Below are positions 36,953 to 49,400 of a stretch of 64,000 nt of DNA, in pieces. Within the stretch, counting starts at the first letter, position 1. Each line of letters opens with the position of its first letter. The stretch spans positions 1 through 64,000 of the forward strand of contig QUOL01000020.1 in NCBI GenBank assembly GCA_009761415.1. Reading direction: 5' to 3'. The translations under genes and the position numbers were made by a program. The notes below the pieces were generated by a model. The model saw nothing but the letters and a program-made list of their open reading frames with translations, made no database searches and was not told where the DNA came from. The DNA comes from Sarcomyxa edulis (lineage: Eukaryota > Basidiomycota > Agaricomycetes > Agaricales > Mycenaceae).

Positions 36953-39772
36953 TTAAAGATCGGACGGGTCTTGGGCGTTGTAGATGGGGCACAAATCATT
37001 CCAGGCATCTGAGTCATAATACAAAGGTGTCAGCATTGATATTGGAGGCAGAGCGGGCAAGGAAGCTCGGTCGTCTTACCCGGAACGGGGTTTGCAGTGC
37101 TCCAATCGGGAGTGTCCTCAGCGAACACGACTGCGAATCCACTATCAGAAGAAAACATGTTCAGCCAGACCATTCGACTATGCAGAGACTCTGGTGTGCT
37201 TACAGTTGCAAATGCCAATCGATGTGGCTAGACGAAGTAACAATTAGTATCAGAGGAAACGGACGAGGGGAAAGGATGCAAACCAATGGAGGAACCAAGG
37301 CCCCTAAGTGATCACACGAGTATCAGCACGTATAAAATGCACGAATGAGGAGAATGAACTTACGGGGTTATCAGTAGTCCACCTAATAGTAACATTATCT
37401 CCGGCGCCACCAATGTTCACGACATCACGACGAACAGGGTTGTCGTAGTTATAAACGCTACTGCCGGCGCTACGAACTACAGAGAACGCATGTCCGTGCA
37501 AGTGGAAAGGATGCTAGTGCGGTGTCAGTGTCAGCATAGCCTCTTGAATTTTGGGAGCTGTACTTACTCCGCCTCCGATGACACCTCCAGGCAACGAGAG
37601 TTCGATGACGCTGTTGGCAGGTAGAGGAATGACTGACCCGGCGGGCATGAGAGTGTCGGCGGTTTGTGCTCCACTGAGAAGTTGGAGGAGGACTGGGACG
37701 GTGGGTGGGACGAAGGAGACACCGTCGATGGTGAACGCTCCATTAGCCTGAGAGACAGCAGAAGCAAAGAAAAAACGATGAAAATGATTGATTCGAAATG
37801 AAAAGGTGAACGATCACTCACGAAAGCAAAGACGAGGTTCTTGACAACATCAGCACCACCTGCTACAGCAGTTCCAGGCTAGAAAAAATTTGTTAGAAAG
37901 AACTCATCATAGACTTCGAGGTGAAAAAAAAAATTACAGCAGCGGGGTTATCAAGAGGCTGGAGAAGAAAATCGACCAATTCAGTCAAGTATCAGGATCA
38001 CAGGGTTTCAGGGTACCTACGTGAAGATTGACTTCGTTCAACGGAAGAACGCTGGTGGATGCAGTAGTCGTCGGGTCTGCGTCAGCTGCGCCAGTGTATC
38101 GAAGGATAGCAGAGTTCATTCCTCCAGCAAAGCTAGAGTTACCGGTATTGGGCTGAGCACGAACCCCTGTGATAGAGAAGATAAGAGATTGTTGGAAGTC
38201 ATCCTGGATACACGAAAGTAGACATACAATAGTTGTCGACTGGTTGACTGGCATCGAGCTACGATACGAAGAGAAGCAATTCAACCAGGTGAATCTTGCT
38301 GTTGAGAGATGCGACTTACGACGAAAGAGTAACGCTGAGCCGGATAAATTTGAATGGAATCCACGAGGAGAGGTTCAGTACTGATACCGTCCGCCTAAAT
38401 CAAGTATTTCACCGTCAGCTAATATTCAATCTAGAAATCAGTGGCACTGAAGTGACACACCTCGATGACAGTCATCTGATGACCGTCGATGGTGAAGATG
38501 TAGTTGGGGTCGCAAGCCATAGAAATAAGCCGGAACCGATACCTGATTCAATAGAGTCAATCATGAGATTGGTTAGATATTGTCGGGTTAGACGAACTTG
38601 GTGCCCGAAACGACAGTTATCACAGCAAGGGGAGACGCGGGTCCACCTGGACGAATCAATCATCAGTAAGAACGTTCTTCACCAATGAGTAGCTGAGACA
38701 TACCGCTATAGCGGCCAAGGCCGTTGATGAGCGTCGATGCAGGAGTTCTATTTGATGTGATCTCTGATTAGTCACATAGCTAGATCAGAAAAGCTTGAGA
38801 ACGCACGGAACGGCGCCTGCACTTTTAGCAGGGACGTGATACCAGTCGGCTAAAGTAAGAACAGTGCTTTCTGTGTGAAACAAGACATTTGTTAGAATGA
38901 GGGAGACGATTGAGGAGGTACGTTGGTACTGACCATCATCAACATCATACAAGCTGGCATGTGGATCGTCGGGATCCGTAATGACAAAGGGCCCTAGTCC
39001 ACGGATCAGGTTTAGCTCAAGATTCCGGGAGAAATATGCGGAGAATTACCTCGAAGACCATCACAGTACTGGGTTTCCAAATGCGAATGATACCAGAAAG
39101 TACCAGCCTGGCCGGCAGAGTTAAAATCGTACAAGAACGAATGTCCTTTCGCGATAGGACTAGAAATGACAGGTTTAGCGGTTGAGCACTAAGGAAGTAT
39201 ATATTTGTAATCCGGGCAAAACTGACCATTGGTTTACCTTTAAATATCAAGACCCGAGTCAAAATTTATATTTAGAAGGGAAGTAAAAATACTGACAAAA
39301 GCTGGACCGTCAGCCCAGTTAGTTCCTGCTTGGAACAATCCGTGCCAATGCTACGAAAACGCCTTGGAGTCAGTTATACGAGAGTATTAATGTCCATTAA
39401 ACTCACGATCGACGTGCTTTGCAGCATGGTGTTATCATCCAGGTTGTTAACCACGGTGATCTGGAAATTGTCTCCCTGAAGATACGATGAGTATTTTGCC
39501 TATGCATCTCGTACGCGCATCAAATTGATACCTTGCTGCCGAGGATGAGAGGCCCAGTCACGGTGCCTCCTGCAAGAGAGGCGCTAGATTATTGGTTTCA
39601 GCTCTGAGACCAAGTAGAAGGGAGGGAAAGTTACTGACGAACGACTGAAGCCGTCAGGAGCGACGTTGACATTCGAGATGACAAGGTCGGCAACAGGACC
39701 GATAGATGCAAGAGAGCGTCCAGCGAATAGAGCTAGAGCAGTAAGGCTGTATAACGCGTGGAACTGGAACAT
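36953..39772 (-). CDS. Laccase (multicopper oxidase), secreted
   Basis: Laccases oxidise phenols with O2 through one type-1 and three type-2/3 copper ions. All four copper signatures are present: L1 [18 protein letters not shown] (about 39300-39353), L2 [16 protein letters not shown] (about 39050-39100), L3 [14 protein letters not shown] (about 37470-37515) and L4 [16 protein letters not shown] (about 37110-37230, split by introns). The first residues from Met39772 ([20 protein letters not shown]) form a signal peptide, so the enzyme is secreted. The C-terminus ends [11 protein letters not shown]. It has many short introns, as is usual for basidiomycete laccases; I did not fix every junction. 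A TATA box lies 78 bp upstream of the ATG. A 6.3-kb mobile element is inserted about 440 bp upstream, which may separate the gene from upstream control elements. Confidence 0.93.
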
Positions 39773-39857: not shown

Positions 39858-40204
39858 CCTGTTATACGAAGAGGGTGCCATACCGGCGGCGATTTTGACA
39901 CCGAAAGCTGACTCGGTGATCAGAGCTAGACTCTCATGAAAACTTCAATTCATCATGTAAATCGTTTGAGGAAATCATAATGCCCACACTCAGCTTCCAC
40001 AGCCGTTCGAGAGAAGCATCGGCGGGAGCATCATCCCATTGGCTATCCAAGAAGGTAGTACGTGTACCTGACGGCCAGAATATACCCAAGCGTCGTAAGA
40101 ATCGATTCCATGCAGTCAAGATGGTTGTCTCTCACCTGCCGTTGTTTTGGGGTGACGAACCAGACTGGCATGAAACGCCGCTGACTTAGTTGAAGTGAAG
40201 CACC

Positions 40205-40211
40205 GTGACCG
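40205..40211 (+). repeat. Target-site duplication, left copy (GTGACCG)
   Basis: GTGACCG directly precedes the left TIR and is repeated in the same orientation directly after the right TIR at 46466-46472. It is 7 bp as read here. It becomes 8 bp (CGTGACCG) if the terminal C of the right TIR is counted as target instead. Confidence 0.85.
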
Positions 40212-40415
40212 GCAGACTCCTACCCATCCGTTATGGGAAGAGTTAAAAGCGAAATCTGAGGATGTCGTTCGATGCTGAATCCTACCTAATCGGGTTTATC
40301 TCTTATCTAAGTTATCTTATCTTTGTTTGTTTTATGTTTACTCTGAACCTTATGTCTTTTAACTCTTCCCATAACGACTGGCAAAATTCTCGGTGGCGGT
40401 ATGCGCATGCTTGGT
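40212..40415 (+). repeat. Left terminal inverted repeat
   Basis: It begins GCAGACTCCTACCCATCC. It is itself bracketed by an inverted pair of a 21-bp motif (CGTTATGGG...TTAAAAG type): 40229-40249 outward and its reverse complement at 40356-40376. The inner edge is near 40415, where similarity to the right TIR fades. Confidence 0.9.
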
Positions 40416-40569
40416 CTGTGGCGCAAAACCGAAGTGCCCGAGCTTGCCCGAGGCATGTAGAGAGTCCGAGAAGCACCTCGTGTACGCCTCTCTGCATGAA
40501 GCGTGGGCCCAGCGTGTAGTGTAGATATATAATACATGAACTGCTAGTGATATTAGTAACTTTTCCAAC

Positions 40570-40971
40570 ATGAATCGAAGCTATCTACTGCAAATTATCA
40601 CCCTCACTGCCATACTTCTGACCGGCTGCCTTTGGCTCGTTCGCAACAAGCGTCGAATGAATACAGACCGTGATATGTGCCGTGAGGTAGTCACAGACTC
40701 AGAGGACATCACGGAGATGGATGAGGATGAACTTCCGGATCTAACAGAGCCAAGTGAGGAGGGGGATGCCTTGACAGAGTCGCGATTTGGCATGAGTGAA
40801 GTAGACGGCGGAGAGTCAGATTCGGGGTATGATTCAGAGGAAGAGAGGTTTGTGGGAGTAGGGAACATCGTTGGACTCAGCGGAATAGTGTTGGGGCCAC
40901 TCGAGACGTCAGTTGGATCTGCGATACTGATTTCAGGGGATGCAATGACAGTCGAAAGGATAAGGGCCTAG
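40570..40971 (+). CDS. Small acidic single-pass membrane protein of the mobile element
   Basis: I do not recognise this family. The ORF codes 133 residues: a short N-terminus, one hydrophobic helix (residues ~5-24, LLQIITLTAILLTGCLWLV), a basic stop-transfer patch (RNKRRM), then a strongly acidic, Ser-rich region with repeated E/D runs, and a glycine-rich tail (VGNIVGLSGIVLGPLET). It lies between the left TIR and the DUF6589 gene in the same orientation, with an AT-rich TATATAATA just upstream. It may be an accessory gene of the element or an N-terminal exon remnant. No homologue comes to mind. Confidence 0.5.
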   Translation: MNRSYLLQIITLTAILLTGCLWLVRNKRRMNTDRDMCREVVTDSEDITEMDEDELPDLTEPSEEGDALTESRFGMSEVDGGESDSGYDSEEERFVGVGNIVGLSGIVLGPLETSVGSAILISGDAMTVERIRA

Positions 40972-41094
40972 GATTACAACTTACCAGGTGTATGACTCGT
41001 GGAGGCTAACAAAAGCATAATGACAGCCGTGGTACGCATGGAGAACACATGTTCACTCTACCTGTCATATATAAATGAGTAAAAGAGAGACTTT

Positions 41095-43854
41095 ATGCAC
41101 AAAACCATGGACGCACATCTTCTTGGCCGTATTCTCTCGATTCTGGACCAGAACAACACCAGTATCTTTGAGCTGATCCTTCTCGTACTACGTAGTCGGA
41201 CAGGGCATGCGGGGAACCATCGTGAGGCCCTTCTTCGCAGAACCCGGGACCTGTTGGATGTCTTTTCAGAACAAGCCAGTGATATTGCCCAAGCGTGGGC
41301 TACAGACGTTGCAGTGGAAACTTACCGCGTCGAGCTGGTGGCCCTAATTCAGCCAAATGTCGGGTTCCATCTCAATGGCAGGAAGGCGAATCTAGAGAAG
41401 ATTGAAACGTTCTCGGTTGCGGAGATGAGCCAGACGATTGAACGTGTGTGCCCAAGATTGTGGAGCCTTCTCGGTGTTCTTCTTGATGCCGATCCGACAC
41501 GAGTACGAGTAGCTCCCGACGAAACAGCGGAGTTCGACGAGGAACGTGAAATGAACCTGGCGGAGATTGACGGGGACGAAGAGATAGAGGATACTTCGGG
41601 CTCTGAGTCGGATTCGGATGCGGATGCGGAATCAGATGCGGAGGAGTCAGAGTCGGGAGGAAGTGACGACGATGAAGACCAGGATAGCATGGCGATGGAT
41701 ATCGACGATGAACCGCCTCGAGCTGTGGCGAGGCCACCCAAAAAACGGCGCAGAAGGCAGAACCCCGCGAGGAGAAATGCTGCATTACTACTGATTGTGA
41801 GTCGTTATGGCTGTAGGTGTAATTTACTATCTACTCACATACGTCGTGTTATAGAAGCGCGTAGTATTGTTTTCCATAATGGGCAATAGCTGCAATAAAA
41901 ACTTCAATGCTCTTCAGTGCATCATTGGTTTTTTTTGCGAGTCAAAAACGGTGCCAGACAAAGTCGTTGAGCTTCTTGCGCACATGGGAATCTCGGTCTC
42001 CACTGTCACAAATCAAAACATGGTCAATTCCTTGTCAAAACACGCCAGCCAGCGCTTGAAGGACTTGCCGTACTGTAACATGATCTACGACAACTTTGAT
42101 ATGGACTTCAAAGTTGCACAGCCAACGGCCGGAAAGCAGGGCCTTCACATGAGCGCGACAGGTGCAACGTTCGCACCGTACGTCAATGTAGATCCCGAGG
42201 ACCTACGTTTCACCAAGGAACTACACGAAACAAGTGCTTTCAACAAAGATCTCAGTGCCGATGACCCAAAGATATACAGACCCACCATTCGAGATGTGCT
42301 GCCCAAGCCACCTGCGACAGATGGCGACGATCTGAGCCCACTCTTGAGAGCGTTTGCGTGGCATTTCCGGGATGTTCTTGTACAGCAGGAACCTGGATTT
42401 GAAGTTTATCGAGAGAAGCTTGGGTTGCCGGAGGTTGTTGATGCACTAACGGTGCTAAAAACAAGTCAGTATCCAGCGCACGCGATCAATGCAGATGAAG
42501 GCTCTCACGATGGGAACTGGGAAGTATTGCAAAGTCTTTTGAGACAGGCGAACATACCGGACCAGAGGCTGGAGGAATACATCACCTTAGTCCATGGTGA
42601 TTTAGGGACAAAGGAGAAGCTTGATGGCCTACGTAGGATGAGAACAATTGAGGCTACAGCCAAAAATCGGCTCGGGTGGATTGTTTTTATTCCTGGGCTA
42701 TTTCACGTCAAAATGGCATGCGCTGATGCGATCTGGAGGACCCACATTCAACCAAAGGAGGGACGAGAGGATGCTACCGGAATGTTCGAGTATATACGTC
42801 ACTTACGACCAAAGGAGACATTGAAATTTGGCAGCAATCCGGGATTTCGTAGGATGCACGACATCATACACCACACAACATGGGTTGATATTCTGGATTG
42901 TTGGAGAATAGAGGCGGAGAAGTTGGGGTACCCCACACTTGACGACTTTCTCAAGGCAAAGCCGTCTTGGGAAGTAATCGTCAATACATCTCGAGAGATG
43001 GCTGTGACATACTTACCTGGGTTAGACTTCCAAGACGAGCGTGAAAAGCCAGCGGAGGAACGCGATGCTTGCTTCGAGAACCACAAACTCCGAAAACAGC
43101 ATTCTCTGCTGTACCTTGAATTGTCGCACGCAATGAATTACGGCGACGTTGGACGCATATTGCGAGTCCTCCCTTACTGGATAGCGATCTTCAAAGGAAC
43201 TGGAAAGCATAAGTATGCTGCGCACATGACAAAATTCATGACAGACCTTGATCATGTATTTCCACCACGGCTCCGGTAAGTTTGGCTTGAGGCTGGGATT
43301 CTCCCCGACACTTATGTGTTACTGCTTGACACAGGCGAGCCATTTTGAACAATTGGCTATGTAATCCAACGGGAAAAGTAAATGGATTCCGGGGCTATGA
43401 CTGGTTAATGGAAAGAAATAATCTTTACATGAAAGTGAGTTCTTCTTTGACTGTTCGAAGCAGGGGGAAATATTTATCGACTTGGGAATAGGTTGTTTTT
43501 CCGGGGGCGGGTCCCAATCGGACGATGCGTTTGGTATTCAAGAGATCGGTCCTGATTGAAGTTTATCGATCAGTTCATCAAATCATCGAGAATAATTTCT
43601 ATCTCACTCACCGAACTATTAGGCATTCCCATCCCAGGATGACGCGTACGCTCAGAAAGCTCGCCAGGTATATCAAAAAAGAAAATCCGCATATATTTAC
43701 ACTAGGGAGAACAGTAAAGCACGAAGTCGCAGATTCCATTAACGAGGGAATCGCACTGTTGGTGGAGAGTACTGACCTGTGTACTATTCCGGACGCAGAA
43801 GCTGGAACGCGGGATGTTGACATTCCAACTGGTAATGATATCGGTGTTGATTAG
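41095..43854 (+). CDS. DUF6589-family protein, candidate transposase of the TIR element
   Basis: Four exons (41095-41796, 41855-43275, 43335-43434, 43492-43854) join to 861 residues with no frame break. The region from about residue 300 onward has the DUF6589 pattern known from multicopy Agaricomycete proteins: YDNFDMDFK (312-316 for YDNFD), HGDLGT (481-486), then RRMRTIEATAKNRLGWIVFIPGLFHVKMACADAIWR (517-529 for the last part). The N-terminal half has an acidic Asp/Glu/Ser run followed by a basic KKRRRRQ stretch, a plausible nuclear localisation signal. The molecular function of DUF6589 is unknown to me. The conserved acidic residues in short motifs and its place in a TIR element make a nuclease or transposase role reasonable, but this is inference. 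In-frame Met at 41107 is an alternative start. The stop is 37 bp from that of the convergent RecQ gene. Confidence 0.88.
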
Positions 43855-43891
43855 TATCATCGGGTGTGGTCAGAAAAATAGATGTATACCT

Positions 43892-46184
43892 TCAAGTTGA
43901 AGGATCCGAGTTCTCTTTCTCGCTAGTAGACTTTGTCGCAGGACCAGAGAAGGCAGGGCAGTTCTTGTTGTTTCCTGGTCAATAAATCAATATCATGGCT
44001 AAGTACGCGTCGTGGAGAGCCAGAGATCACGTACTATTATGACCGACACCACCACAGGCACCGCACGTTCTTGGTTTCTTGACAGAAGTAGAACTACCCG
44101 CACCTGTGGGTTGGTTACTGGCAGAAGACGGTCCACTGTGGGCTCGGGGCTGGAGAGGGACTGTGGTGAATGGTAAAGATGGAGGCGGGGGAGGGCAAAA
44201 CTGTTGTACAAGACCAACAATTTTGACTCCGTACGTATCTAGAAAGGCCCAAGTGATTTGGTCTCGTAGCTTGTCGATGGTAGTGAGTTTTTGATAATGA
44301 GCGAGGTCGACAATCCGTTCTAAGAGCTTGGTAGACATGAGTGCCTGTGGAGTAATAAAATCTGCTCCTTTTGCCGTCTCTTCGAAGAGTTGCTTGCGCA
44401 TCGCGATAAGAGCTGTGCGCAAGTTCTTCTCAGGTAAGCCTCGGTCATAAGACGGCGGCATGAATTTGGAGGCTGTACGAGGTGGTTTTTTGTAAGGTTC
44501 TGATAGAGGGAGTATAGCGTGCTCTGGATTGCAGAGATCACAACAAAATACGGCTATTCGAGGGGAGCAACGAGGACAGCACTCTTTGTCAATGACAGGT
44601 GCTTGGGAAAATGCGCGATAAGATCAGTGTTCTTTCTTGATGGACCGAAAAAGGCAAATCAAGAAGACTTACGTAGATCGATGTTCCCAAAATGGTTGTT
44701 TGCAACTTTCCGCCGACACCTCTCTTCTCGTCGATCCGCGTTGATAAAATCGTCCATAGCTTTCTCGATTTTTAGACGAGGATCGTCGCTCCCAGTAGCA
44801 ACCGCTTCTGACCCCGAGGCACCCTCGGTCGTGAGATTTTGGCGTGACCAGTGTGCGTTTGCCGTACGTCTTGTACGTTTTGCGGATGCTGGCTGAAATT
44901 GCCCTTCTGCTACTCTCTTTTTCGCTCGTTCAGATGCTTCAGCAGCCTTCTGAGCAGCCTTCTCCTTTTCTTCGTCAAAAAAGCACGGCTCCGCAAGCAG
45001 TACAGCGGTTCCTTGTATATTCGGGTTCCGAGCCACACGCCCTGCTCTTTGTATGAAGGTACTCAAGGAACGAGGTACACGGTACTGTACAACCAATTTG
45101 ATATCAGGAATATCGATGCCCTGAGGTTATATTAGCTTCTGACCAAGCAAAATAGAAGAGATAACGTACCATTCCTGCTGCATCAGTGGCGGCATGGCCG
45201 AAGGCATCTCCAATCTGAAGTGCGTACATTTGATCTTGTCGAAACTCGTCCGTCATACCAGAATGGAACCATTTAATTTTGTCTCGCAACTCTTCCGGCA
45301 GTCTCTCACGCAAAACCTGACCACCGGCTTGTGCTTCAGCTCGAGAGTTGAAGAACACAAGAAATTTCTGTGGAGATGGGTCCCCAGGTTTGAAGGTCTT
45401 GGATATGAGGAATGCGAGGTCGTGGTACGAGTTGACTGGATGAACCATTTTTTGTACGCGGTAGAAGATGTTTGGGCGATCTGTGGACAGACGGATGATG
45501 GTAGTGCGGTCTTCTCGAAGATGAAGATTTCGTTTGATTTCCGGAAGTAGAGAAGGTGGCATTGTGGCGGTCCCGAGATGGTAGCCAATTCGACGGCCGA
45601 GGAGATACCGGATTGGGCCCAGTTTAGTATAGTCTGCACGAAATGTGCCTCCCCAATCCCTTATAACGTGTGCCTCATCAAAAACTACATTGATCAATTT
45701 GTCCGTAAATTGTTTTTTGCCCCAGAGGAGATCAAATCGACTGTCATTCAGCAGAAGCTCGGGGCTGACAATGACTATGCGATAAGTGCCACGGCCAATT
45801 TCCTGTCGTTTTATCAGCACTACATTTTGGAGAAGCTTTAGAGTATCTAGTCACCTCAAAGAGTTCGTTTGTTGCATTCCCAGCTGTCATCGAGATGGCT
45901 CTGATATTTTTGGCAGAAAGCTGCTGTACAAATTGTGTACCTAGCTGTTTAAGAGGAGTTACAAGCACAGATATGCCATGTTTAATGTAGAGGAGTGGAA
46001 TCCAATATGTCATTGATTTTCCAGCACCAGTAGGGGCGATAGTAATGACATCGTCCATGGCTAAAACATGGCGAGCCACACGAATTTGCCAGAGACAGGG
46101 GCGAATTCCCAATATAGCTTCGACCTGAGCCTGGGCCTCTTCATCACTGTCCGGCATTGTATGTTTCATGCGAGTTTGGGACAT
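43892..46184 (-). CDS. RecQ-type ATP-dependent DNA helicase of the TIR element
   Basis: A superfamily 2 helicase. Motifs in order: Q-like/I APTGAGKS (Walker A, near 46040), II VVFDEAH (near 45675), III TATMP, V TDAAGMGIDIPD (spliced) and VI QRAGRVAR (near 45030). Exon 1 runs 46184-45855, with a 52-nt intron to 45802. A second intron interrupts AAGM|GIDIPD. The C-terminal part has a Lys/Glu-rich helix, a Cys cluster (CCPRCS...CCDLCNPEHA) resembling a zinc-binding module, and a CCHC-like knuckle (CGACGGVGHN..NKNC) just before the stop. No HRDC domain is seen. In-frame Met at 46157 is an alternative start. The closest known context is the mobile or subtelomeric RecQ helicases of fungi. Here the gene lies inside a TIR element facing a DUF6589 gene, which suggests both act in transposition. 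Confidence 0.88.
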
Positions 46185-46261
46185 CAGAATAGACGCAAAT
46201 GTAAAAGTATAGAGCAGAGACGAAAGCTGGTTGTAATTCGGTCACCTCGGCGACGAGTAGA

Positions 46262-46465
46262 TCGAGAGGCAAGCCAAACATGCGCATACCGCCACCGAGA
46301 ATTTTGCCAGTCGTTATGGGAAGAGTTAAAAGAAACAAGGTTCAGAGTAAACAACATACAAACAACGATAAGATAAGATAAACCCGATTAGGAAGGATCT
46401 AGCATCGACCTATATCCTAGGATCTCGCTTTTAACTCTTCCCATAACGGATGGGTAGGAGTCTGC
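46262..46465 (-). repeat. Right terminal inverted repeat
   Basis: It ends GGATGGGTAGGAGTCTGC, the reverse complement of the left terminus. It contains the same 21-bp motif pair at 46312-46332 and 46428-46448. It lies directly upstream of the RecQ gene, so it probably also serves as that gene's promoter region. Confidence 0.9.
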
Positions 46466-46472
46466 GTGACCG
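46466..46472 (+). repeat. Target-site duplication, right copy (GTGACCG)
   Basis: Identical to 40205-40211. Removing the element plus one copy would leave ...AGCACCGTGACCGGGAGTTC as the empty site. Confidence 0.85.
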
Positions 46473-49400
46473 GGAGTTCAAGAACATGATCTAGGCTGGT
46501 TTCTGAATTGTCGCTTCGGCCCATGCAGTGCGCAATATTGGCGCACAATCTGACAGCTGTGCGAAATACATTGATGAACAGATAGACGCGACCATCACGC
46601 CGCTCGACCTCGACCTCCTCGATGAGTTTCAGAATCAGAAGTAAAAGTCACGGAGGAACCTGAAAGCCTCGGAATAGACTTCCAGGGCGTCTCGGCACTT
46701 GGCGAAGGTTCAGGCTCCGACGCTTCTCCGACTTGGCGCCTTCAATCCAACTTGTTCAATCATTGACACAACGCTTGCAGTACCAGTGACACTCTCCATG
46801 CGTCTCCATGCGTCCTGCCTTCGACAAAAACTTGCCGGACTGTACATGCATGTCCTTATGTCTTTGGAAACATTTCGTTCGAAATACTTCGAAATCTTCA
46901 GTCCCATCGATCTATCAGCGCCTGGTATCCGCTCGAATCAATAATCGCTAGCGGTATGATGCGGGATCCATAACGATGTTTTCTAGTTCTCACTGACTCT
47001 CACGGACCGATTACTTTCTCACCTTCCATCCCCGACTTCCCGGCATCCAACTGATGAGCCATATACGCGACCATCTTTTTCGGTCGAAGTACCTTCTCGG
47101 GACCGGTGAGCGACCTCGAAGATGGTTTATATATACAAGGATGGTATGCCTAAAGTAGGTATGTCAGGGCTATCTGATAACCACGTCGATGCCTTGCGGT
47201 CGTCTCGAGCCAATATTCTCCATTGGTATCGACCTGTGTCCGCTGTTTTCGACGGCTTCCTAAAGCCCTCCTTCTTTCCGAGACGAACAAGACCACAATC
47301 CCCAAACTATACAATTAGGCGGCATGTAATCGAAAGATATCGGCCTTCCTATCCCGCCCTTTGATGCGCGCTTGGAGTTAATCGGTTCAACAGTCGTCTT
47401 TGCACTGCTATTCAACAAGATAGTCGGTTGATGTTCCGTCGTCTCTGACTGACCATGTGTACCTCGCGAACACATGGTCATCCTACCTTCCAAATCTAGA
47501 TACAGTTCCGAGAATGAGTCCAGTTTCTTTGTCTCGTCCTCTTACTGATGCATAATATGCTCATGTCCTAATAAGCTCATGTCCCCTTTCGTCTCAGGAA
47601 CCTCTTGGACTATGGCTGCGCTTCCGAGAAACTTGTTTCGCTCATTGTTGACAATGCTGATCGAACCCGAAATGTATGTCACCCTAACCTCCTTCATCCG
47701 CCGTACATGGGACCCAGTGCCTGTCTATCACTCCCACCAGCTCCTTCCAGACACGATTTCTAGCACGAATCATTCATAGCACTTTCCCCTTCTTGCGACT
47801 CCTCTCGAAGCGGACCACTTCCGGGTGTACTCCGACGGATATGCAACTTTCCAGTCTCGAAGATTTGGTCCGAGAACTGCAATCCATATGTGCGCGATAG
47901 TCTTTCGTGATCCTTGGACCCTTCCGGGAGACTCGTATATCCCTTTGTGCGCTTTCTACGTCTATTCAGTCAAGCTGCCAAGACGTGTCTGCTGACTATC
48001 ATCAAATGACAGATGTAGCCTCCATCCATGAGACCAACTTGAGGGATTAAGATGGGAAACCGTCAATTCACTTCTCGTGGTACCTCTTATTCCTCGGATG
48101 CCTATTCCTCTTAGTTGCGGTCCTTGTTTCCCGTATACTCATTGTCTCCCCTGCTCACGGCAAAATATGATACTCATCTGACTGCATTGAGGCCGAGACT
48201 GACTATTTACACTTAGGATCGGTGGCCCTCCCCAGAAAATCAGAATTTCCCATAGAGATTCCCCTTACTCCTGGCGGTACCTCTTTCATCCCTTGGCCCA
48301 ATCACTCCCTGATGTATCGCTCTGGAATTTCTAGTACATGAACATTTCTAACCCGATAGACGGAGACAGTTCACATGGGAGGTAAATTCTGCCCGAGTCC
48401 TGATCCTGGATAATTCTACCGACTTCGTTCTTCATGTGGCACGTAGACCTTCATATGCCTTCATAGCAGGTTCATGGCCCGATACTTCTGGAGTGCGTGT
48501 ACATCTCTTGTTACACCTCTTCAGACGAGTTCTCGAGCAGTGAGCATCTCCCCACCGTACGTTCGTGACCTCTTGTTCTATTCATTGTTGATCATCCTGT
48601 GGGGCGAACCCTCTGGTGGAGCAATACATGTGGCAGACCAGCTTCCTATGTACAACGCGTTCGTGACCTTACCAGCTCTTGCTGTACTTTTGGCCAGTGA
48701 TGATCTAGGTCAGTGACGTCTTGTCCCGAGGGCTTCGTCGTTCACTTTGAAAGACGTTCATTGACACATCGCCATGATCTGTTTGTCGGAGCTGACTGGC
48801 GCTGAATACTGCTTTGTTGACAGATTATATCCCGATCTTTCCGTCGCCTGCATTATCTGTCGAATATGTCGAGTATCGGATGCTCGAGTCCCTTCTCACA
48901 ACTACTCTCCGGTACCCCTTGCAATTGGTATTTCGCCATCTTCAACCGCTGTACATATACTTATTTTAGCTTGCCATCTGGTTGACCTCTTTCAAATATA
49001 TGGTCGTAGGTTGGTCACCTAGACTGCTCAAATGAAGGTGTGTCGTATCTTATGAAAAGTGCATCGCGTTTCGAGCGTTGAACAGGCAACCGTTGAAAAA
49101 ATTATAGACTCCGACTGCAACCTCTTCCCTCTCTCCGCTCCGCTAGGACCTTGCTCCAACTAGTCTTGTCGCGTGAAGCCTATGGCGATCTGCTGTCATG
49201 TTCGTGCGTATCAGAGAAAATATGAGGTGACAATGTCTTGTTCGAGGTGCAGTCTATTTCTTGGTCGATCCTTCTATATTGGAGTCAGTCAAGTCATTAT
49301 GTTCATGAGATGATGATCGTACTCTTGAAAATAGAGAGTATGCCTTTGGATTTCGATTTAGTGTCACCGGAAGCAGATATTGATGCGTCTTTCGACGACG

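What the first reader, a model, noticed from the sequence alone, without database searches (positions are those of the whole stretch)
40212..46465. TIR transposon that pairs a DUF6589 protein with a RecQ helicase
Seen: ~204-bp inverted repeats, a 7-bp target duplication, and two convergent genes filling the interior. Known: DUF6589 genes are numerous in Agaricomycetes and have no assigned function; mobile RecQ helicases are known from subtelomeres. Inferred: DUF6589 is the transposase of an undescribed superfamily and the RecQ helicase its replication or repair partner. This would explain why DUF6589 genes are multicopy.
Basis: partly seen in the sequence, partly recalled or inferred. Interest (0 to 1): 0.92.

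Follow-up and report, generated by a model that had tools for sequence, protein, structure and literature searches.

The report
AcademH-like transposon with DUF6589 transposase
A recently mobile mushroom 'jumping gene' carries a protein of unknown function (DUF6589) that is very probably its cutting-and-pasting enzyme, together with a DNA-unwinding enzyme; its layout matches a transposon group already described in 2020 (AcademH), so the link to DUF6589 is the new part.

Summary
The element is 6,252 bp (40213-46464). Its TIRs start CAGACTCC, and the target duplication is 9 bp (CGTGACCGG), not 7. Six elements with these ends were found in the host genome; all six have an exact 9-bp duplication. 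One, on another contig, is 100% identical over all 6,252 bp (later split by an LTR-type insert), so movement was recent. Four are short derivatives without DUF6589. Two further DUF6589+RecQ elements, one with a transposase only 21% identical, also have TIRs and exact 9-bp duplications.

'Undescribed superfamily' is not supported: a 9-10-bp duplication plus an encoded helicase in Basidiomycota is the published signature of AcademH (Kojima 2020). No Academ transposase sequence was available, so membership is probable, not proven. Four of nine DUF6589 loci showed no TIRs in what was read.

The parts
40204..40212 (.). left copy of 9-bp target-site duplication CGTGACCGG
46465..46473 (.). right copy of 9-bp target-site duplication CGTGACCGG
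40213..40414 (+). left terminal inverted repeat, begins CAGACTCCTACCCATCCG
46274..46464 (-). right terminal inverted repeat (86.6% identical to the left, 11 bp shorter)
40224..40249 (+). subterminal 26-mer, outer copy in left TIR; inverted inner copy at 40356-40381 (92%); putative transposase-binding sites (inferred)
   Evidence: I3
40356..40381 (-). inner inverted copy of the subterminal 26-mer, left TIR
   Evidence: I3
46307..46332 (+). inner copy of the subterminal 26-mer, right TIR
   Evidence: I4
46428..46453 (-). outer copy of the subterminal 26-mer, right TIR
   Evidence: I4
40570..40971 (+). small ORF, 133 aa, no Pfam match; found in the own genome only in the window and the identical C17 copy; function and coding status unknown
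41095..43854 (+). DUF6589 (PF20231) gene, predicted DDE transposase, 861 aa; exons 41095-41796, 41855-43275, 43335-43434, 43492-43854 (gene model by hand, no transcript evidence)
   Evidence: fold on a homologue
44027..46169 (-). RecQ-type superfamily-2 helicase gene, 656 aa; exons 46169-45855, 45802-45170, 45120-44673, 44601-44027 (gene model by hand, no transcript evidence); DEAD + Helicase_C, Cys-rich stretch and short zinc-knuckle-like C-terminus

Best explanation
This is a low-copy, recently active cut-and-paste DNA transposon of an Agaricomycete, of the AcademH type. SHOWN: long TIRs, exact 9-bp target duplication, two convergent genes without internal stops, an identical second copy elsewhere, short derivatives with the same ends, and two diverged sister elements built the same way. 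STRONGLY SUPPORTED by predicted fold and conserved acidic residues: the DUF6589 protein is a DDE (RNase-H-fold) transposase. It would bind the TIRs, cut the element out and join it to target DNA at nicks 9 bp apart; gap filling makes the 9-bp duplication. INFERRED: the RecQ helicase, encoded on the other strand and kept in lineages whose transposases are ~21% identical, unwinds or remodels DNA at the transposon ends or at donor or target gaps during strand transfer or repair. INFERRED: the element belongs to AcademH, so that DUF6589 is the catalytic part of (at least fungal) AcademH transposases; the short elements are mobilised in trans.
Confidence: 0.78

Rival explanations
1. A separate, undescribed superfamily: DUF6589-RecQ elements are independent of Academ and only resemble AcademH in duplication length and helicase.
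For: Listed named DUF6589 relatives are all Agaricomycetes (taxonomy recalled), narrower than AcademH's reported range; 0 held papers contain DUF6589, and a search for PF20231, pfam20231, DUF6589 or AcademX gave one paper with AcademX and one unrelated physics paper.
Against: Two unusual features, a 9-bp duplication and an encoded helicase in Basidiomycota, both match AcademH as described in PMC10045372 and PMC10799480 (passages). The protein search is not sensitive enough to exclude animal or ascomycete relatives.
Confidence: 0.15
2. A MULE (MuDR) element with an acquired RecQ: long TIRs and 9-bp duplication are MULE-like (recalled), and the helicase is a passenger.
Against: No MULE Pfam domain in the spliced window protein, in P0026, or among the 25 of 30 families shown for 60 DUF6589 members. 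A C/DxxH is not a conserved feature: at most 19 of 60 rows at any fixed column.
Confidence: 0.05
3. A KolobokH element, the other fungal transposon lineage that encodes a RecQ helicase.
For: KolobokH encodes RecQ and has been found only in fungi (PMC9587614, passage).
Against: In KolobokH the helicase lies downstream of the transposase domain, here it is a separate convergent gene; the duplication is 9 bp in the 8 insertions whose ends could be placed, against TTAA in Kolobok (recalled).
Confidence: 0.01
4. DUF6589 is a passenger or regulatory gene and the true transposase is another ORF or acts from elsewhere.
For: Several DUF6589 loci stand without visible TIRs or RecQ; a 133-aa ORF of unknown function also lies in the element.
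Against: The only other long gene is a RecQ-type helicase; the DUF6589 model matches DDE transposases and carries conserved D, D, E; DUF6589 is shared by three diverged TIR elements; the 133-aa ORF was found only in the two identical copies.
Confidence: 0.03

Closest known systems
AcademH (Academ superfamily; Kojima 2020, Mob DNA 11:15; not read, described from passages in PMC10045372 and PMC10799480)
   Same: DNA transposon with encoded helicase, 9- or 10-bp duplications, low copy number, Basidiomycota.
   Different: Transposase homology not tested here; whether AcademH records carry the DUF6589 name could not be looked up.
KolobokH (Kolobok superfamily; PMC9587614 passages)
   Same: Fungal DDD/E transposon that encodes a RecQ helicase.
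   Different: [quoted passage not shown] TTAA duplication (recalled).
hAT transposase Hermes and P-element transposase (PDB 4d1q, 6p5a)
   Same: [quoted passage not shown]
   Different: 9% sequence identity in the aligned part; 8-bp duplications and no encoded helicase (recalled).
RAG1/Transib
   Different: Not matched by the DUF6589 sequence profile in PDB at E<=1; duplications of 5 bp (recalled).

Membership tests
AcademH | 9- or 10-bp target-site duplication (PMC10045372) | tested here: met
   9 bp exact in 6 of 6 same-TIR elements and in 2 diverged DUF6589+RecQ elements
AcademH | encoded helicase (DEAD and Helicase_C; also found in KolobokH and Helitron, PMC10799480) | tested here: met
   spliced helicase: PF00270 6e-19, PF00271 5.7e-16; RecQ-type by best NCBIfam (below cut-off) and PDB matches
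AcademH | terminal inverted repeats (recalled for Academ) | tested here: met
AcademH | transposase homologous to Academ transposases | not testable with these tools
   no Academ protein, profile or paper with sequences available; Kojima 2020 not held
DDE transposase (RNase-H fold) | RNase-H-like transposase fold | tested here: met
   on a predicted model of a homologue only (P0026, pLDDT 82.4): VIA-align ranks 1-20 are all DDE transposases/RAG1
DDE transposase (RNase-H fold) | conserved D, D, E/D triad in the fold's active site | tested here: inconclusive
   D172 60/60, D349 59/60, E603 32/33 ungapped; spatial closeness not measured
Kolobok / KolobokH | TTAA 4-bp duplication (recalled) | tested here: not met
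   9 bp in the 8 insertions whose ends could be placed
Kolobok / KolobokH | C/DxxH between second D and last E (PMC9587614) | tested here: inconclusive
   present at one fixed column in 15 of 60 rows including the window's, at another in 19 of 60; not conserved
MULE (MuDR) | MULE transposase domain | tested here: not met
   no MULE Pfam match for the window protein at E<=0.1 or P0026 at E<=1; 25 of 30 families shown for the other members
MULE (MuDR) | C/DxxH between second D and last E (PMC9587614) | tested here: inconclusive
   as for Kolobok
hAT | 8-bp duplication (recalled) | tested here: not met
   9 bp
PF20231 (DUF6589) | match above Pfam cut-off | tested here: met
   330 bits against a cut-off of 27

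The most novel reading that the evidence does not exclude
DUF6589-RecQ elements form a superfamily of eukaryotic DNA transposons of their own, distinct from Academ, with a hAT-like-folded DDE transposase and a standing RecQ partner, spread through Agaricomycetes and repeatedly leaving domesticated, TIR-free DUF6589 genes behind.
Probability: 0.15. Interest if true: 0.75.

Novelty: new member of a known kind. Interest (0 to 1): 0.5.

Why it matters
It proposes a function for a Pfam 'unknown function' family: 632 proteins passed E<=0.001 in one search, and all 120 that were listed carry PF20231. DUF6589 is very probably a DDE transposase that often travels with a RecQ helicase, which would let many mushroom proteins be annotated as transposon genes. 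A whole-looking copy, an identical second insertion and short derivatives with the same ends in one genome are a practical starting point for asking experimentally why a cut-and-paste transposon carries its own helicase. If membership in AcademH is confirmed, DUF6589 becomes a ready profile for finding that lineage.

Tried and rejected
Rejected: 7-bp duplication with ends GCAGACTCC. The scan finds it too, but several other family members match the left TIR only from its second base and the one-base-shorter ends give 9 bp in all six. Rejected: the C17 copy as a large cargo element; the extra ~12.25 kb has identical 474-bp direct repeats and a 5-bp duplication, i.e. a nested LTR-type insert. Rejected: the 7.8-kb C37 element as autonomous; it is a ~1.4-kb derivative (97% like the second C37 copy) with a nested insert encoding a reverse-transcriptase-like ORF and a phage-integrase-like ORF, both weak Pfam matches.

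Led nowhere: DUF6589 relatives in viral contigs, prokaryote genomes and plasmids (none); an empty site for the window insertion in the own genome (only the two flanks); telomere repeats in the window (none); solved structures by sequence profile (nothing relevant). TIR/duplication searches around DUF6589 loci C1:2528848 (16 kb read), C6 and C5 (9 kb each) and C10 (9 kb) found none; C19 has convergent RecQ and a 45-nt 80% inverted repeat without duplication. The C1 and C11 duplications were found by scans that allowed 7-11 bp and 9-mers only, then 9 and 10 bp, so for C11 the length was partly presupposed. The alignment A1 used the window exon and 59 of the 120 listed proteins. One search is the first, smaller version (4 of 12, 0.37 expected). 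On checking, the claim that C/DxxH is absent from DUF6589 did not stand; it is now 'inconclusive', and I lowered the best explanation from 0.80 to 0.78 and raised the MULE rival from 0.03 to 0.05 for it.

Full report
What is there. The interval 40213-46464 is a 6,252-bp element with terminal inverted repeats of 202 and 191 bp (86.6% identical). Read with ends CAGACTCC...GGAGTCTG it is flanked by an exact 9-bp duplication, CGTGACCGG. Each TIR holds two inverted copies of a 26-mer, plausible binding sites (inferred). Inside lie two convergent genes: an 861-aa DUF6589 protein in four exons and a 656-aa RecQ-type helicase in four exons on the other strand, both without internal stops under canonical GT-AG introns placed by hand. 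Above the curated cut-off, Pfam sees only DUF6589 in the first and DEAD + Helicase_C in the second.

It is a mobile family. In the 35.6-Mb host assembly the terminal 18-mer has 12 zero-mismatch hits, the two ends of six elements, and 15 more hits at two mismatches that were not examined (searches give the same elements by TIR similarity). All six have an exact 9-bp duplication, each of a different sequence. One, C17:250574-269080, is identical to the window element over all 6,252 bp but interrupted by a ~12.25-kb insert with identical 474-bp direct repeats and a 5-bp duplication. Two insertions at two sites with no substitution between them mean very recent transposition. The insert falls in the last DUF6589 exon (window equivalent 43811-43815), so the C17 DUF6589 gene is interrupted near its end. 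Four others are shorter derivatives: two of ~1.4 kb, one of which carries a nested retroelement, and two of 1.07 and 1.9 kb with TIRs about 70-81% like the window's. No DUF6589 match lies in them, so they must be moved in trans if at all (inferred).

The architecture is old. The genome has nine DUF6589 loci (21 exon matches). Five of nine have a convergent RecQ relative: the window, C17 (there separated by the 12-kb insert), C1:2876079, C11 and C19. The C1 element (L048 1755-7422; TIR TAGTCTCG..., duplication TCTATATGC) and the C11 element (L049 1970-8548; TIR TAGAC..., duplication GGAAGGACA) have exact 9-bp duplications. The criteria used were met in 12 and 8 of 1000 first-order resamples of these two loci, and inverted repeats of 51 nt (80%) and 98 nt (92%) lie just inside the ends. 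The C1 transposase exon is only 21% identical to the window's, so TIR + 9 bp + RecQ has been kept over a long divergence. C19 keeps the convergent RecQ and a degraded inverted repeat, without a duplication. Against generality: C1:2528848 has a RecQ relative ~8 kb away in divergent orientation and no TIR found; C5, C6 and C10 showed neither TIR nor RecQ in the 9 kb read around each. The tblastn also missed the DUF6589 exons of C5 and C10, so it could have missed a diverged helicase. These loci may be decayed, larger than what was read, or domesticated.

Pairing beyond this genome. Neighbouring DNA of other fungi could not be fetched, so contigs were compared by species and length. Of 24 named DUF6589 proteins in species that also gave a listed RecQ relative, 7 share a contig length with that relative, against about 0.7 expected for assumed 45-Mb genomes (simulated P 1.5e-5): Armillaria luteobubalina, Lentinula raphanica (two, on contigs of 44 and 128 kb), Fomitopsis serialis, Gymnopilus dilepis (a 14.5-kb contig, tags CVT26_012793 and CVT26_012791), Pleurotus pulmonarius (consecutive tags EYR36_011614 and EYR36_011613) and Plicaturopsis crispa. 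17 of 24 do not; only listed hits (120 of 632, 120 of 271, 46 of 46) could be matched. In the listing the fungal relatives fill the first 63 rows (61 with a species name, entered), above RecQ proteins that mostly carry RQC or Zn-binding domains (domain names recalled from the accessions).

How it most likely works. The DUF6589 protein binds the TIRs, excises the element and joins it to target DNA with a 9-bp stagger, giving the 9-bp duplication. The helicase, kept beside the transposase in diverged lineages, most likely unwinds or remodels DNA at the ends or gaps during transposition or repair; this is inference only. PMC10045372 (passage) says that the difference in duplication length between AcademH (9-10 bp) and AcademX (3-4 bp) seems related to the helicase or nuclease they encode.

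What it is among known things. [quoted passage not shown] The original paper is not held. The AcademH features I could test are met; the decisive one, homology of the transposase to Academ transposases, could not be tested. KolobokH, the other RecQ-bearing fungal lineage (PMC9587614), is made unlikely by duplication length (TTAA recalled) and gene arrangement. So 'undescribed superfamily' is not supported, while 'DUF6589 is the transposase' is. In the held library no paper contains DUF6589, and a search with PF20231, pfam20231, DUF6589 and AcademX found nothing on DUF6589; within those two searches the DUF6589-transposase link looks unreported.

Verdict. A real, recently mobile, AcademH-like element: a new member of a known kind, with the functional assignment of DUF6589 as the part worth keeping. 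Interest 0.5.

Noticed in passing
window 38785-39045 (-) and upstream exons to ~39919: A laccase gene on the minus strand lies next to the element (35 PDB sequences matched, most named laccase, best E 1.9e-10); the insertion seems to lie a few hundred bases from its start (start judged by eye, gene not modelled; Pfam gave no match on single exon frames).
   Followed up: partly
G000:C17:250574-269080 (L009, L010): The identical second copy is split by a ~12.25-kb LTR-type insert with identical 474-bp repeats that holds an 897-aa open frame without a Pfam match.
   Followed up: partly
L012 3290-9700 (G000:C37): Nested retroelement with an RT/RNase-H-like ORF (weak PF13456) and a phage-integrase-like ORF (weak PF00589), DIRS-like in layout (inferred), inserted inside a TIR of a short derivative.
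   Followed up: partly
G000:C6:533128-534547, C10:418945-420465, C5:76487-77963, C1:2528848-2530288: DUF6589 genes with no TIRs in the stretches read; the C6 and C1 exon matches have no stops in them; possible domesticated transposases.
   Followed up: partly
window 40570-40971 (+): A 133-aa ORF with an N-terminal hydrophobic stretch and an acidic middle, found in this genome only in the two identical copies; possible third gene.
   Followed up: partly
P0259 (Coprinellus aureogranulatus, 1228 aa) and P0268 (Pleurotus pulmonarius, 1171 aa): Gene models that join DUF6589 with DNA-ligase-type domains (PF01068/PF14743) and with an F-box-type domain (PF12937) (domain names recalled); may be annotation fusions or captured domains.
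   Followed up: no
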